Assembly (NCBI GenBank): GCA_902196205.1
Contig: CABIKM010000014.1
Coordinates: 1 to 64,000 of the forward strand
Source of the DNA: Candidatus Methylomirabilis lanthanidiphila
GTDB lineage: Bacteria; Methylomirabilota; Methylomirabilia; Methylomirabilales; Methylomirabilaceae
Reading direction: 5' to 3'
DNA: 64,000 nt
Positions 12,394-26,235 of the stretch are shown in pieces. The notes under the pieces are model-generated. The model saw only the letters and a program-made list of their open reading frames with translations, did no database searches and was not told where the DNA came from. The translations under genes were made by a program, and so were the position numbers. The first letter of the stretch is position 1. Every line of letters begins with the position of its first letter.

Positions 12394-12672
12394 CTACCCC
12401 GCTGGCATCGTACTTGCCTTTTCGCATACCGGCACATATGGCGCGGCACCGCTTTTCGAGGTAGAGCAGACGTCTATTGTCACCTGCGTGACAGGATTTT
12501 TCACGTCGGGCTGCAGCGTCTTGCATTGCCAGGCCGGATCAGACCGCCAGCCGACATATTCCACTGTCAGATATCGATGCAACGTATTGAAAATGGTGGC
12601 CTTGTATCTAATAGTGCATAAGTCTTGTTCTGACGACCTTCTGGCACACTCATTGCACTCATTTTGTGGCAT
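12394..12672 (-). CDS. Possible small cysteine-rich protein
   Basis: Open frame of 92 residues from ATG 12672 with AAAGGA six bases upstream. Six cysteines, including CNEC at the N-terminus, and an ordinary amino-acid mix (RYKATIFNTLHRYL, WRSDPAWQC). No family recognised. It is divergent from the riboswitch-controlled gene and its ribosome site lies on the complement of the riboswitch P1 strand. Coding status is uncertain: the same region is also open on the plus strand (12488-12832). Confidence 0.3.
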   Translation of the reverse strand: MPQNECNECARRSSEQDLCTIRYKATIFNTLHRYLTVEYVGWRSDPAWQCKTLQPDVKNPVTQVTIDVCSTSKSGAAPYVPVCEKASTMPAG

Positions 12673-12678
12673 CGAAGG

Positions 12679-12771
12679 TTCCTTTCCGATAAACGCAAAC
12701 CAGTCGCGAGGCTGGGACGCAAAGCCACCGGTCAGCAAACGGGCTGACAGCGGGGTTACCGAAGAAAGGAA
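12679..12771 (+). promoter_or_regulatory. c-di-GMP-I (GEMM) riboswitch aptamer
   Basis: Contains the conserved core acgcaaacc, a hairpin ccagtc-GCGA-ggctggg with GNRA tetraloop, gggacgcaaagcc, a second hairpin and agcggggttaccga. P1 closes perfectly: ttcctttc (12679-12686) with gaaaggaa (12764-12771). Class and core motif are established knowledge for GEMM-I; the pairings are read directly. The downstream gene at 12829 encodes a secreted DUF4091 protein. Confidence 0.9.
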
Positions 12772-12786
12772 GGGCGGTACCACCCA

Positions 12787-12827
12787 CCGCTCCTTTCGGA
12801 AAGCAACCTTCCGGAAGGAGCGGTTTT
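12787..12827 (+). terminator. Riboswitch expression platform (terminator / SD-sequestering hairpin)
   Basis: 15-bp stem with one G-U pair (12787-12801 with 12809-12823), 7-base loop, then TTTT. The 3' arm contains ggaaggag, the ribosome site of ATG 12829. A competing helix pairs 12764-12778 with 12786-12797 (12 bp, 3-base bulge). That helix shares bases with both P1 and this hairpin, so ligand binding should favour the terminator (OFF). Confidence 0.8.
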
Positions 12828-12828
12828 C

Positions 12829-14805
12829 ATGAAGACCACAGTTGCTTTCGCCCTGGCCCTCACAGTAGCCTTCACCGGAATCGTTGGAAATCACGCCGAA
12901 GCCGCCAAGGCAAAGCCCGATCTGATCGTCTCCGCCGTCAGCGCCCCGCCCTCAACCTCCCCAGGCGCGACTATCGTCGTATCCGGTACCATTAAGAATC
13001 AAGGCAAGGCTAGCTCGAAAGCCTTCAGTGTTGCGTACTATCTTTCCCCGAGCGCTTCCAGCACCAGCGGTGCGGCTGTGCTGGGGACTCAGAACGTATC
13101 GGGTCTCGCAGCCGGCGCCAGCGTGGCCCTCAGCAATTCATTTACTGTTCCCGCCTCAACCACAAGCGGCACATTCTATGTCGTGGGGGTCGCCGATTCG
13201 ACCAAGGTCATCAGCGAGAGCAACGAGAGCAACAATGCCCGCGCCTCCGGCGGTATCGTCATCCAGTCTGCGGCGTCAACTCCGGTATCGGATAATCAGA
13301 TAACGGTCTGGGTCACCGATGCCCTTACCCGCATCCAACCCACTGATCCTACCGGAACTACCGCCGCCGCCGCGATCAAGGCCGCTCGAAATGAATACGA
13401 GACCTTCCAAGTCATCGTGCGAGCACCTGATACGACCGACCTATCGGGCGTTAATGTTACCATATCTGACCTGGTCGGCCTCGGGACGATTGCTAAAAGC
13501 AACATCGCCCTTTATCGTACTCACTATATTCCTGTTACGGCGAAGTCTCAATTCTCGAGTAATGGCTGGTACTCGCCCAATCAGCCCGGCGACTGGCCAG
13601 ATGCCCTTGTTCCCTCTTCCGTACCTGGAGGAACCTATCAGTCGTTCCCATTCTCGGTTCAGGCCGGGAAGAATCAGCCGGTACTGGTAGAGGTGTTCGT
13701 TCCCAAGGAGAGCCCGGCAGGAACCTATACCGGCACGTTGACTATTACCGCTACCGGGCAATCGCCGGTGACGATGCCTATCATCTTAACGGTATGGGGT
13801 TTTACTCTACCCGACAAGCCGGCCCTAGCCTCGGACTTCTGGGGCTATGACCTGTGGATGACCACCAACTACTCTTACTCCGCGGGGGCAGATCGACTTA
13901 CCCTCAGAAATAATCTCTACACCGATCTGCGACGGCATCGGATCGGCTTTGGCTTGACAGACAGTACGGGGCCTTTCCCGAACGCATCCCTCGATGCTGT
14001 TCTGCAACAGCAGGCACGGATCCAGTCTCCCTGGAACATGACGGATGTCAATCTCCAAGAGCTGGTGGGTGCGTACGGAGCAGATCAACTCTTTGGGCAG
14101 CATTACGATGAACCGCAGACAGTCTCACAAATTAACGCAATCAACGATCCGAACGGCGAAGTTCAACGATATCGGCGAAATGGCGTCCCAGAGCTGCTGA
14201 CCGTGTCGTGGTCATCCGAGCTGATCAACGGCGAATATGCCGGCTGGAGCGCCAATGTCGACATCTTCGCCGGCGTTCACTACGCTCTGATCCCCTTCTC
14301 AAACGCGCAGAAGAAGTTAAACGAAGGGAAGGCCGTCTGGAGCTATTCGGCAGGGATGCAGCCGAATGAGGCCCCCACCTGGCTCCTCGACTATAACCTC
14401 GTCCACTTCCGGATGGTCCCGTGGTTGGACTACTCGACCGGTCTTACTGGATTTCTGTACTGGACACCCGTCAACTGGTGCGGCGGCGACCCGTGGACCA
14501 ACAGTGGAATACCCGGCAGCGGATGTGAGAGCAACCGCAACATGGACGGGGTTTTCTATTTCCCTGGAGATAAGGTGGGCGCCCCGAATGCTGCGATCCC
14601 CTCCGCTCGTCTCAAAGCTATCCGGGATGGTGTAGAGGACTACGACTATCTGGCGCTGCTCGCCAACCTTGGCGATCCGATCCTTGCGAAGAGCTTAGCC
14701 AAGGCACTGGCCCCGGCGTTCGATTCCTGGAACCATGATCCGGCGGCGGTCGTCGCGGCGCGGGAGCAGGCGGCGGCGCGGATTGTGGCGCTGGGGGGCA
14801 ACTAG
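12829..14805 (+). CDS. Secreted CARDB + DUF4091 (GH123-like) protein
   Basis: 658 residues. Signal peptide (MKTTVAFALALTVAFTG, cut near AEA). A CARDB-type immunoglobulin-like domain at about 28-145 (KPDLIVSAVSAPPS, GTIKNQGKAS). Then a beta-sandwich linker domain (VWVTDALTRIQPTD, AARNEYETFQVIV) and a catalytic-like barrel ending in DUF4091, with signature LKAIRDGVEDYDYLALL near residue 600. DUF4091/GH123-like proteins are putative glycoside hydrolases, so this one may trim or bind an exopolysaccharide outside the cell; the substrate is unknown. Expression appears controlled by the upstream c-di-GMP riboswitch, predicted OFF at high c-di-GMP. A paralogue without CARDB follows 70 bases downstream, probably in the same transcript. 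Confidence 0.8.
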   Translation: MKTTVAFALALTVAFTGIVGNHAEAAKAKPDLIVSAVSAPPSTSPGATIVVSGTIKNQGKASSKAFSVAYYLSPSASSTSGAAVLGTQNVSGLAAGASVALSNSFTVPASTTSGTFYVVGVADSTKVISESNESNNARASGGIVIQSAASTPVSDNQITVWVTDALTRIQPTDPTGTTAAAAIKAARNEYETFQVIVRAPDTTDLSGVNVTISDLVGLGTIAKSNIALYRTHYIPVTAKSQFSSNGWYSPNQPGDWPDALVPSSVPGGTYQSFPFSVQAGKNQPVLVEVFVPKESPAGTYTGTLTITATGQSPVTMPIILTVWGFTLPDKPALASDFWGYDLWMTTNYSYSAGADRLTLRNNLYTDLRRHRIGFGLTDSTGPFPNASLDAVLQQQARIQSPWNMTDVNLQELVGAYGADQLFGQHYDEPQTVSQINAINDPNGEVQRYRRNGVPELLTVSWSSELINGEYAGWSANVDIFAGVHYALIPFSNAQKKLNEGKAVWSYSAGMQPNEAPTWLLDYNLVHFRMVPWLDYSTGLTGFLYWTPVNWCGGDPWTNSGIPGSGCESNRNMDGVFYFPGDKVGAPNAAIPSARLKAIRDGVEDYDYLALLANLGDPILAKSLAKALAPAFDSWNHDPAAVVAAREQAAARIVALGGN

Positions 14806-23214: not shown

Positions 23215-26200
23215 CTACGCTGAATTGGTATTCATTGAAATAGCAGGCAAGGCCGGATGAACCGTACTCGCTCGCCTCAGCACGGCTTCGATCCTTGCGC
23301 GCAGTTCCTCCAACTTGAAGGGCTTGCGGAGGTAATCGTCTGCGCCGGACTGTAGCGCAGGAATCGCGTCGACCTCTTCCCCGTATCCTGTGATCATGAT
23401 GATTGGGATACGGCTGTACACGGGGTGCGCGCGAAGCTGCTGACACAGTTCGAGGCCGCTCCTATCCGGCAGTTTCACATCAAGAAGGATCAGATGAGGA
23501 GCCTCGGCCATGATCCGGTCAAATCCCTCACGGGCGGTGTGGGCTGTCGTCACGATAAACATGTCGTTCACGGCCAAGAACTCTTTTAACAGCTCGCACA
23601 TCTGCTTATTATCGTCAACCACCACCACACGATATTGTTCGGCGGCCTCAGCAAGCGCAGAGAGTGGCGCCTCCTCAGGTGGAGTATAACTCGGCACAAC
23701 CTCCTGGACCTTTCGAAGAAGGCGAGCAAAGTTGCCGGACATCGCGAGGTGTTCCATCTCATCGACAAGTGCTTCGATCTCGAACAGCAGTTTCGGTCGC
23801 TGTCGAATGGCAAAGATCCTCCCGTGACCCAGCGCCAGCACCTCTTCACTGTCTTCCCAGAGCGCCTCATGCATCTTTTCTCCAGGCCGTAACCCTACAT
23901 GCTCCTGGACAACTTCGGTTGGAGACAGGCCAAGCGATATCACCAAGTTGTGAGCAAGCTCGGTGATTTTTATGGGACCACCCATATTCAAAACAAAAAC
24001 ATCACCCCTTTTTTCTAACGTTGTGCTTTCCAGGACAAGGCCGACCGCTTCAGGGATCGTCATGAAGAAACGTGTGGCGCCGGGATCGGTGATGTGGATG
24101 GAGCCCCCGTTTTCTACCTGCCGCTCAAACAACGGGACAACGCTTCCTGCGCTGCCGAGCACGTTACCGAACCTCACGATTCGGAATTGCGTCGCGTGAG
24201 AGTTATTCGAACAAAAATCCGTAATCTTAGTGAGAACGTCCCCCTCACCCGAACCCTCTCCCCCAAATGGGGGCGAGGGGGAAAAAAAGCTTTCATGTCT
24301 ATGGGGTACGCTACCGGCGCATGGGGTATTGCTCAGCGCTGTAATATACATCTCGCAAATCTTTTTGGTTGCCCCCATAAGATTGCCCGGATTGACCGCC
24401 TTGTCCGTCGAGATAAAGACGAACGTCTCTGCGGCATATCGCCTCGCCAGGTCGATCAGTCGTTTCGTCCCAACGACGTTATTCATCACCGCCTCTGCCG
24501 GATGTCCCTCCAGGATCGGCACGTGCTTATAGGCCGCGGCGTGGAATATGACCTGCGGCCTGGTCCGTTCGAATATCTCAGACATGCGCGGAATATGCTT
24601 AATATCAGCCAGGGCCGCCACCACCGTAACATCAGCACAGCGTTCCTTGATCTCCAGTGAAATTTCGTGCAAGGCGTTCTCGGCACGTTCGACCATGATG
24701 AGCGACTCGACGCCATACCCGATCAGTTGCCGGCACAGTTCTGAGCCGATAGATCCCCCTGCTCCCGTGACCACAACGCGCTTCCCGCGAAGAAACGCGG
24801 TAATCGTCTCCCTATCGACGGATACCGGTTCCCGCGTAAGCAAGTCATCACTATGCACCTTACGCAGATAGCGCAGTTTCCCTTCGCCCCTTACAAGTTG
24901 GGTAAACGAAGGAAGGGTCTTGAACGGCAGACCGGCTTGTGCGCACATACCGCTGACGCGGCGCATCACGTTGCCGTTTGCAGTCGAAATCGCGACAACC
25001 GCTTCGTCGATTGCATGCGCCTTCGCAAGGTCAGGAAGCTCATCAATGGCGCCGAGGACAGGTCGGCTATGAATGGTCGCATCCTGCTTCTGAGGATCAT
25101 CATCGACAAATCCAATAAGGTTATAATCCAGTGACGGATTGCCGAGGATTTCTCTTGCAATCGCTTCACCGGTTTCCCCGGCCCCGACAATGACAACGTT
25201 GCGGCGGCCATGTGTCGAAGGTACGGAAGTCTCTCGCCTCTCAGCACGCAATCGCACAAGCAGCCGCGTACCTCCCGTCAGCAGAACGATCAGAGGTGCG
25301 GTCAAGACGAGAACCGATCTCGGATAGCTGTGCCATCCCAGCAGGATTAGCGCAAAGCCGTGTAGGCCTACCCCCAGGGTCGATGCCTTGATGATCTGTC
25401 TCAGATCCTCTATGCCGGCGAACCTCCAGATACTCTTATGAGTTCGCAGGACCAGAAACGATAGCAGGTAGACCGCGCAGACGACGGGAAGGCCGTAGAG
25501 GAGGTGCCACACCTCTTTCTCCGGCAGTGCCCAGTCAAAGCGGAGCATGAAGGCCCACAGGTTTGCAGCAACAATGGTAAGACAATCCAGCGTCAGCCTT
25601 GCGCATTGTTGCAAGGTAGAGGGCGGGTTGACTGCCGCGACAATCCGCCGCCCTATTGTCACAGACGTAAGCATGACGTACCAAAGGTCACGCCCGATTG
25701 ACCGTGTACGAACATACTCCAGGTCACTCTTCAGCTTCTCCTGAATGAACTGCTTGGTATAGTGTTCAATGGTGTCCACCCCAACAGGAAATTTGTCCGA
25801 TTCATCGATCCACGCCAGTTGGGTCGGACCGGTGATGCCCGGTTTAACCTCCAGGATTTCGCGTTGTGTCGCCGTATACTGTTGAACGATCGAAGGAATC
25901 TCGGGGCGAGGCCCAACCAGGCTCATGTCGCCTGTCAGGACATTGATGAACTGGGGCAACTCGTCGAGCTTAAGCCGTCTCAGCCATCCACCTACCCGCG
26001 TCACACGCGGATCGGCGCTTCCAGTTAAGGGCGGTCCCAGTCGCTCTGCATCTGCGACCATGGATCTGAATTTGAGAACCCTGAAACTCTTTCCGCGCCG
26101 CCCGGCCCGCTCCTGAGTGTAGAAGACCGGACCCGGCGAATCGAGCTTAATGGCAACAGCAACGAGGAGAAAGATGGGAAGCAGCAATGCCAGCGCTACC

Positions 26201-26235
26201 AGGGACAGAACAAGATCGATTGCCCGCTTGAGCAT
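23215..26235 (-). CDS. Fusion: sugar-1-phosphate transferase + WbpM/CapD 4,6-dehydratase + receiver domain
   Basis: 1006 residues in three parts. Residues 1-195: bacterial sugar transferase (WbaP/PglC type) with FRVLKFRSMVADAE, LDELPQFINVLTGDMSLVGPRP; it starts the repeat unit by moving a sugar-1-phosphate to undecaprenyl phosphate. Residues about 210-850: a complete WbpM/CapD protein with four helices, a nucleotide-binding domain (VVIVGAGETGE, near 352) and an SDR domain (VVVTGAGGSIGSELC near 488, FISTDKAVNPGNLMGATKK), a UDP-sugar 4,6-dehydratase. Residues about 870-1000: a full receiver domain (VVVDDN, LILLDVKLP, MITGYG, LRKPF). A palindromic repeat (24236-24300) adds a loop (FFSPSPPFGGEGSGEGD) between the catalytic lysine helix and RIVRFGNVLGSAG. 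All key residues are present. It may couple synthesis of the first sugar to phosphorylation signals. No kinase is adjacent. Confidence 0.85.
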   Translation of the reverse strand: MLKRAIDLVLSLVALALLLPIFLLVAVAIKLDSPGPVFYTQERAGRRGKSFRVLKFRSMVADAERLGPPLTGSADPRVTRVGGWLRRLKLDELPQFINVLTGDMSLVGPRPEIPSIVQQYTATQREILEVKPGITGPTQLAWIDESDKFPVGVDTIEHYTKQFIQEKLKSDLEYVRTRSIGRDLWYVMLTSVTIGRRIVAAVNPPSTLQQCARLTLDCLTIVAANLWAFMLRFDWALPEKEVWHLLYGLPVVCAVYLLSFLVLRTHKSIWRFAGIEDLRQIIKASTLGVGLHGFALILLGWHSYPRSVLVLTAPLIVLLTGGTRLLVRLRAERRETSVPSTHGRRNVVIVGAGETGEAIAREILGNPSLDYNLIGFVDDDPQKQDATIHSRPVLGAIDELPDLAKAHAIDEAVVAISTANGNVMRRVSGMCAQAGLPFKTLPSFTQLVRGEGKLRYLRKVHSDDLLTREPVSVDRETITAFLRGKRVVVTGAGGSIGSELCRQLIGYGVESLIMVERAENALHEISLEIKERCADVTVVAALADIKHIPRMSEIFERTRPQVIFHAAAYKHVPILEGHPAEAVMNNVVGTKRLIDLARRYAAETFVFISTDKAVNPGNLMGATKKICEMYITALSNTPCAGSVPHRHESFFSPSPPFGGEGSGEGDVLTKITDFCSNNSHATQFRIVRFGNVLGSAGSVVPLFERQVENGGSIHITDPGATRFFMTIPEAVGLVLESTTLEKRGDVFVLNMGGPIKITELAHNLVISLGLSPTEVVQEHVGLRPGEKMHEALWEDSEEVLALGHGRIFAIRQRPKLLFEIEALVDEMEHLAMSGNFARLLRKVQEVVPSYTPPEEAPLSALAEAAEQYRVVVVDDNKQMCELLKEFLAVNDMFIVTTAHTAREGFDRIMAEAPHLILLDVKLPDRSGLELCQQLRAHPVYSRIPIIMITGYGEEVDAIPALQSGADDYLRKPFKLEELRARIEAVLRRASTVHPALPAISMNTNSA
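24236..24300. repeat. Palindromic repeat inserted in frame in the triple-fusion gene
   Basis: cccctcacccgaaccctctcccccaaatgggggcgaggggg type element, related to 5066-5165 and 26250-26315. Read on the minus strand it keeps the frame open and encodes a Ser/Pro/Gly-rich loop in the SDR domain. Confidence 0.7.

What the first reader, a model, noticed from the sequence alone, without database searches (positions are those of the whole stretch)
12679..12827. c-di-GMP-I riboswitch with traceable OFF-type switching in front of a secreted DUF4091 protein
The GEMM-I core is complete with a GNRA tetraloop. Three helices compete on paper: P1 (12679-12686 with 12764-12771), an anti-terminator (12764-12778 with 12786-12797) and a terminator that also buries the ribosome site (12787-12801 with 12809-12823, then TTTT). 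Ligand-stabilised P1 frees the terminator, so high c-di-GMP should switch off a putative polysaccharide-degrading protein while exopolysaccharide is being made.
Basis: partly seen in the sequence, partly recalled or inferred. Interest (0 to 1): 0.78.

Follow-up and report, generated by a model that had tools for sequence, protein, structure and literature searches.

The report
Sigma54-driven c-di-GMP riboswitch, altered pocket base
A secreted sugar-polymer enzyme gene next to a slime-making gene cluster is preceded by a genuine c-di-GMP riboswitch that most likely blocks ribosome access when the signal is high; the riboswitch carries an unusual base in its ligand pocket and, like nearly all its relatives in this bacterial class, sits directly behind a sigma-54 promoter.

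Summary
Four points change the reading.

(1) The core is complete but not canonical. Ligand-contact base 20 (Vc2 numbering; window 12694) is C, not G. It is the only C20 among 111 aptamers of its class. A sister genome has the identical 80-nt aptamer with G20. C20 aptamers recur in other phyla.

(2) The 'terminator' is better read as a ribosome-site sequestering hairpin. Its T-tract is short and not kept in relatives, but the anti-SD helix is.

(3) A fourth strand was missed: the RNA 5' end (12674-12687) can pair with the hairpin loop (12798-12811). In all 7 close copies the predicted balance tips away from P1 just before the SD emerges, then back (shuffled platforms: 1 of 42). This supports a co-transcriptional OFF switch.

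(4) A perfect sigma54 site (12642-12657) precedes it, as in 96 of 110 class members (0 of 110 on the opposite strand).

The genome has two canonical GGDEF proteins and no Hypr-type one, so c-di-GMP is the likeliest ligand. Binding, affinity and switching direction are untested.

The parts
12477..12494 (+). intrinsic-terminator-like hairpin upstream, likely insulating the unit from upstream transcription
12642..12657 (+). sigma54 -24/-12 promoter TGGCACACTCATTGCA; predicted +1 at about G12668 (12 nt after the -12 C)
   Evidence: exact consensus match, the only one in the window; same element at similar distance in 96 of 110 class members; genome encodes sigma54
12674..12687 (+). leader strand a (GAAGGUUCCUUUCC): 3' part is the P1 5' arm, whole strand can pair with loop strand d
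   Evidence: sequence; pairing appears in the predicted folds of transcripts ending 12810-12815
12684..12764 (+). GEMM-I (c-di-GMP-I) aptamer
12694..12694 (+). ligand-contact base 20 (Vc2 numbering), C instead of G
   Evidence: numbering checked against PMC3764141
12721..12721 (+). A47, intercalating base, conserved
12759..12759 (+). C92, Watson-Crick ligand contact, conserved
   Evidence: sequence; alignment
12764..12778 (+). strand b: P1 3' arm plus extension; pairs with c in the ligand-free alternative
12786..12797 (+). strand c: pairs with b (SD free) or with e (SD buried)
12798..12811 (+). strand d: loop-side strand complementary to leader a
12809..12824 (+). strand e: contains the Shine-Dalgarno AAGGAG (12815-12820); 3' arm of the sequestering hairpin
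12829..14805 (+). exported protein: signal peptide, CARDB, GH123 N-terminal and catalytic (formerly DUF4091) domains, 658 aa
14876..16459 (+). second GH123-like protein, probably co-transcribed

Best explanation
This is a c-di-GMP-I (GEMM-I) riboswitch transcribed from its own sigma54 promoter that controls translation of an exported GH123-type glycosidase as an OFF switch. Shown by sequence and computation: the aptamer, the sigma54 site, the SD-sequestering helix c.e, and the two competing helices a.d and b.c that exclude P1. Inferred: without ligand, the elongating RNA rearranges to a.d plus b.c just before the SD is made, leaving the SD open. With ligand bound, P1 (a.b) is locked, c and d stay free, and the SD is captured as soon as it emerges, so translation stops. 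The ligand is most likely c-di-GMP bound with reduced affinity, because base 20 is C. Transcription needs sigma54 and an activator, so expression needs two conditions: activator on and c-di-GMP low.
For: Rfam scores. Two canonical GGDEF proteins, both keeping the Asp that Hypr cGAMP synthases lose, so no sign of cGAMP synthesis by that route. Perfect sigma54 site and class-wide coupling: 87% against about 1% in shuffles, 0% on the reverse strand and 3% for C20 aptamers of other phyla. Anti-SD pairing is specific to each locus's own platform: mean duplex -16.9 against -13.2 kcal/mol when permuted, 0 of 20000 permutations. One concerted three-strand change in a relative (G010a: c C->U, b G->A, e G->A) keeps both alternative helices. 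The predicted P1 against no-P1 balance tips to no-P1 before the SD and back after it in 7 of 7 close copies, 1 of 42 shuffles. Cd1 with the equivalent base changed to C still binds c-di-GMP by NMR (PMC9262584). A GEMM-I OFF switch acting on translation is precedented by Vc2 (PMC7371385).
Against: Equilibrium folding of the complete leader keeps the SD closed whether or not P1 forms, so the ON state would be only kinetic. In Vc2, mutating G20 is reported to cost about 30,000-fold in affinity (cited in PMC4744006). The 7 close copies are related, not independent. The same double flip appears in only 23% of the other class members (1% of shuffles), so the four-strand exchange is well supported only in the genus. 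No transcript or binding data exist for this organism.
Confidence: 0.6

Rival explanations
1. The hairpin works as an intrinsic terminator: c-di-GMP favours P1, frees the terminator and stops transcription before the gene.
For: 16-bp GC-rich hairpin of -28.5 kcal/mol followed by UUUU.
Against: Only four U, then CAUG; not reported by the terminator scan; the U-tract is replaced by GUGUUC, GUUGCC, GUUGUC or AUUGUC in the close relatives that keep the SD helix.
Confidence: 0.1
2. C20 has disabled the aptamer: the leader is a relic, and the gene is controlled only by sigma54 and a fixed SD hairpin.
For: C20 is unique among 111 class members; G20 mutation in Vc2 costs about 30,000-fold in binding; equilibrium folding leaves the SD closed.
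Against: The aptamer is otherwise 79 of 80 identical to the sister while the protein is only about 62% identical; the platform keeps its competing helices; intact C20 aptamers, some in tandem, recur in many phyla.
Confidence: 0.15
3. C20 marks a change of ligand: a different cyclic dinucleotide is sensed.
For: Base 20 is the known specificity base (G for c-di-GMP; A in the cGAMP-sensing variants). The genome carries a CBASS-like nucleotidyltransferase locus.
Against: Only canonical GGDEF enzymes were found; the Cd1 C mutant still binds c-di-GMP; neighbouring genes are ordinary c-di-GMP-type targets.
Confidence: 0.08
4. The element is an ON switch: ligand and P1 favour opening of the SD.
For: Riboswitches of extracellular or pilin genes can be ON switches (pilM, PMC9262584); in the other families of the class part of the leader pairing lies just outside P1.
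Against: In the genus the anti-sequester strands a and b are the two arms of P1, so P1 and the SD-free fold exclude each other.
Confidence: 0.07

Closest known systems
Vc2 c-di-GMP-I riboswitch upstream of tfoY, Vibrio cholerae
   Same: GEMM-I aptamer; ligand-bound form restricts translation (PMC7371385; Inuzuka 2018 cited there)
   Different: base 20 is G in Vc2; platform sequence unrelated; no sigma54 coupling that I know of
Cd1 c-di-GMP-I riboswitch, Clostridioides difficile
   Same: OFF switch; P1-type strand exchange; co-transcriptional competition
   Different: output is an intrinsic terminator, antiterminator formed by T, A and H strands (PMC9262584)
RF03167 c-di-GMP-I-GGC variant
   Same: scores above its cut-off (63.8 bits)
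   Different: that model has G at position 47 and G at 20; here A47 and C20
Geobacter cGAMP-sensing GEMM-I (pilM type)
   Same: same scaffold, base 20 differs from G
   Different: base 20 is A there and C here; ON switch; no Hypr GGDEF found in this genome

Membership tests
c-di-GMP-I riboswitch (RF01051) | covariance-model score above gathering cut-off, full length | tested here: met
   70.4 bits against 35, positions 1-87
c-di-GMP-I riboswitch (RF01051) | A47 and C92 ligand contacts, GNRA tetraloop, C44/G83 tertiary pair bases | tested here: met
   A12721, C12759, GCGA loop, C12718 and G12750
c-di-GMP-I riboswitch (RF01051) | G at position 20 (consensus, not invariant in nature) | tested here: not met
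   C12694; of the 98 class members read automatically 93 have G, 4 have A, only the window has C; 13 more were not called by the script and read as G or A by eye
c-di-GMP-I riboswitch (RF01051) | binds c-di-GMP | not testable with these tools
   no binding assay
c-di-GMP-I-GGC variant (RF03167) | G at position 47 in the model consensus | tested here: not met
   A47 in the window; model consensus GACGCGAA
cGAMP-sensing GEMM-I | A at position 20 and a Hypr-type GGDEF in the genome | tested here: not met
   C20; both GGDEF proteins canonical
intrinsic-terminator expression platform | stable hairpin followed by a U-rich tract, kept in relatives | tested here: not met
   UUUUC only; tract not kept
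translational SD-sequestering OFF platform | SD paired in the state compatible with P1, freed in the exclusive alternative | tested here: met
   (computational only; not visible at equilibrium)
sigma54 promoter | GG/GC elements at -24/-12 with consensus TGGCAC-N5-TTGCW; sigma54 gene present | tested here: met

The most novel reading that the evidence does not exclude
C20 GEMM-I RNAs are an unrecognised natural pocket subclass, spread over Paenibacillus, Burkholderiales, Chloroflexi and others, that senses a ligand other than c-di-GMP; this window holds a member that arose recently by a single G-to-C change inside a sigma54-coupled riboswitch regulon.
Probability: 0.08. Interest if true: 0.85.

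Novelty: new variant of a known kind. Interest (0 to 1): 0.5.

Why it matters
It gives a natural one-base experiment. The sister genome has the same 80-nt aptamer with G20, and this one has C20, at the base known to set cyclic-dinucleotide specificity. Two short RNAs can therefore answer whether C20 retunes affinity, changes ligand or kills the switch. The class-wide pairing of GEMM-I with sigma54 promoters (96 of 110) implies that in these bacteria most c-di-GMP riboswitch genes, 67 of 82 of them with a hydrophobic (exported-type) N-terminus, need both an activator signal and the right c-di-GMP level. I found no held paper describing that.

Tried and rejected
Equilibrium accessibility of the SD with P1 forced or forbidden: no consistent direction over 88 loci (10 up, 6 down), so it was not used to argue OFF. 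Filing under RF03167 because it wins by E-value: rejected, A47 not G47. cGAMP as ligand: rejected for lack of A20 and of a Hypr GGDEF. Leader-platform pairing by permutation is significant (-16.3 against -14.9, 0 of 20000), but relatedness inflates it, so it is treated as support only. A census of C20 against G20 in the Paenibacillus family could not be run; a strict-pattern check of 20 C20-bearing genomes found 15 without a G20 copy. Kellenberger 2015 and Nelson 2015 are not held.

Full report
**What is there.** A full-length GEMM-I aptamer lies on the + strand at 12684-12764 (RF01051 70.4 bits, cut-off 35; RF03167 63.8 bits, cut-off 59). It is the only GEMM-I found in a genome of 3.05 Mb, 99.98% complete.

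**Source.** The tools hide the organism. Sister genome G006 is a single contig of 2,752,854 bp, which I recall as the size of Candidatus Methylomirabilis oxyfera. The class would then be Methylomirabilia, with family f7 (G035-G091) probably Rokubacteria-like. This is inference from memory, not a test.

**Pocket base.** With numbering anchored on published positions (tetraloop 32-35, C44, G45-C22, A47, C92; PMC3764141), base 20 is C at 12694, while A47 (12721) and C92 (12759) are kept. Of 111 class aptamers, 93 read as G20 and 4 as A20; 13 were not called by the script and read as G, or A in L245, by eye. Only the window has C. The sister G006 aptamer differs at that base alone (79 of 80 identical), although the controlled proteins are about 62% identical over the first 391 residues.

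**C20 elsewhere.** C20 aptamers are not artefacts in general. About 60 of the 80 fetched loci look like real GEMM-I by eye, and each of the 18 loci tested with Rfam holds at least one aptamer above its cut-off. In 20 C20-bearing genomes, 15 had no G20 copy under the same strict pattern. Published data pull both ways: Cd1 with C at the equivalent base still binds c-di-GMP (PMC9262584), while Vc2 is reported to lose about 30,000-fold on G20 mutation (PMC4744006). Starting from a wild-type Kd of 0.011 nM (PMC9049102), that loss would still leave sub-micromolar binding. A detuned c-di-GMP sensor is therefore my preferred reading.

**Ligand supply.** The genome has two GGDEF proteins with GGEEF and GGDEF motifs, both keeping the Asp of the GHxxGD motif, so neither looks like a Hypr cGAMP synthase (the Hypr signature is from my own knowledge). 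No EAL domain was found; HD-GYP was not searched. A SMODS-type nucleotidyltransferase sits beside a patatin-like and an E2-like gene, which resembles a CBASS locus.

**Promoter.** TGGCACACTCATTGCA (12642-12657) is an exact sigma54 site, the only exact match in the window, and the genome has one sigma54 gene. It places +1 near G12668, just before the leader strand used in switching. Scanning 80 nt upstream of 110 class aptamers, 87% reach the score threshold of 19. The figure is 1% for dinucleotide shuffles, 0% for the reverse strand, 2% for windows 300 nt downstream, 1% for windows further upstream, and 3% for C20 aptamers of other phyla. The median distance from the -12 C to the aptamer is 29 nt. 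Searches of the held library found no paper joining sigma54 and GEMM riboswitches in this way, and none on riboswitches in Methylomirabilis or Rokubacteria. The library lacks most subscription papers.

**Expression platform.** Strands in order: a (12674-12687, leader and P1 5' arm), b (12764-12778, P1 3' arm and extension), c (12786-12797), d (12798-12811), e (12809-12824, with the SD). State 1 is a.b plus c.e, SD buried. State 2 is a.d plus b.c, SD free. Over 82 loci, the SD pairs better with its own platform than with permuted ones (-16.9 against -13.2 kcal/mol, 0 of 20000). In G010a the c strand changes C to U together with G to A in both b and e, which keeps both alternative helices (read by hand from the sequences). 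The U-tract after the hairpin is not kept in the close relatives, and the terminator scan does not flag it. Output is therefore most likely translational.

**Switching.** At equilibrium the SD hairpin dominates regardless of P1. Following the growing transcript, however, the P1 state is favoured first. The no-P1 state is then favoured by about 8-11 kcal/mol (ensemble; about 9-13 by MFE) when the RNA ends roughly 10-20 nt before the start codon. P1 plus the closed SD is favoured, or at least level, once the SD is out. This holds in 7 of 7 close copies and 1 of 42 shuffled platforms. In other class members the full pattern is seen in 23% against 1% of shuffles, and the dip alone in 82% against 31%. 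A tightly bound ligand could supply the energy needed to hold P1 through that interval. This argues for a kinetic OFF switch. Limits: nearest-neighbour energies only, no tertiary contacts, related sequences, plain (mononucleotide) shuffles of the platform.

**Target.** The gene encodes an exported CARDB plus GH123-type protein. It and the next gene both keep a DEP motif that matches the GH123 Asp-Glu dyad; the alignment shown supports this for the second protein, and for the first it is my reading of the sequence. Next to it lies a polysaccharide cluster: glycosyltransferases, Wzx- and Wzy-like proteins, chain-length/tyrosine kinase, export protein. Of the seven close copies, four precede CARDB proteins and three precede a lipoprotein-like gene. 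Class-wide, 67 of 82 first genes have a hydrophobic N-terminus. Examples include fibronectin/Ig-repeat proteins, a type II pilin-like protein, a response regulator and a glycosyltransferase. The physiological story, less glycosidase while polysaccharide is being made, is plausible but untested.

Noticed in passing
loci L002-L031, L173-L253 (class-wide): 87% of GEMM-I aptamers in the class sit about 29 nt downstream of a sigma54 -24/-12 site, on the coding strand only
   Followed up: yes
L032-L111: GEMM-I aptamers with C at specificity base 20 occur in many phyla, some as neighbouring copies (L061, L043, L091)
   Followed up: partly
L270 (G000:C1, about 93870-94283 and flanks): CBASS-like locus: patatin-like, SMODS-type nucleotidyltransferase and E2-like proteins
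   Followed up: no
23215-26235 (-): 1006-aa fusion of bacterial sugar transferase, Polysacc_synt_2 epimerase and a C-terminal response-regulator receiver domain
   Followed up: no
L010, L216, L232, L237, L245: A20 aptamers (the cGAMP-type base) in a few class members, worth checking for Hypr GGDEF enzymes
   Followed up: no
L150 (G005) and L155 (G010): two similar riboswitch copies about 7 kb apart, one before a lipoprotein-like gene and one before a CARDB gene
   Followed up: partly
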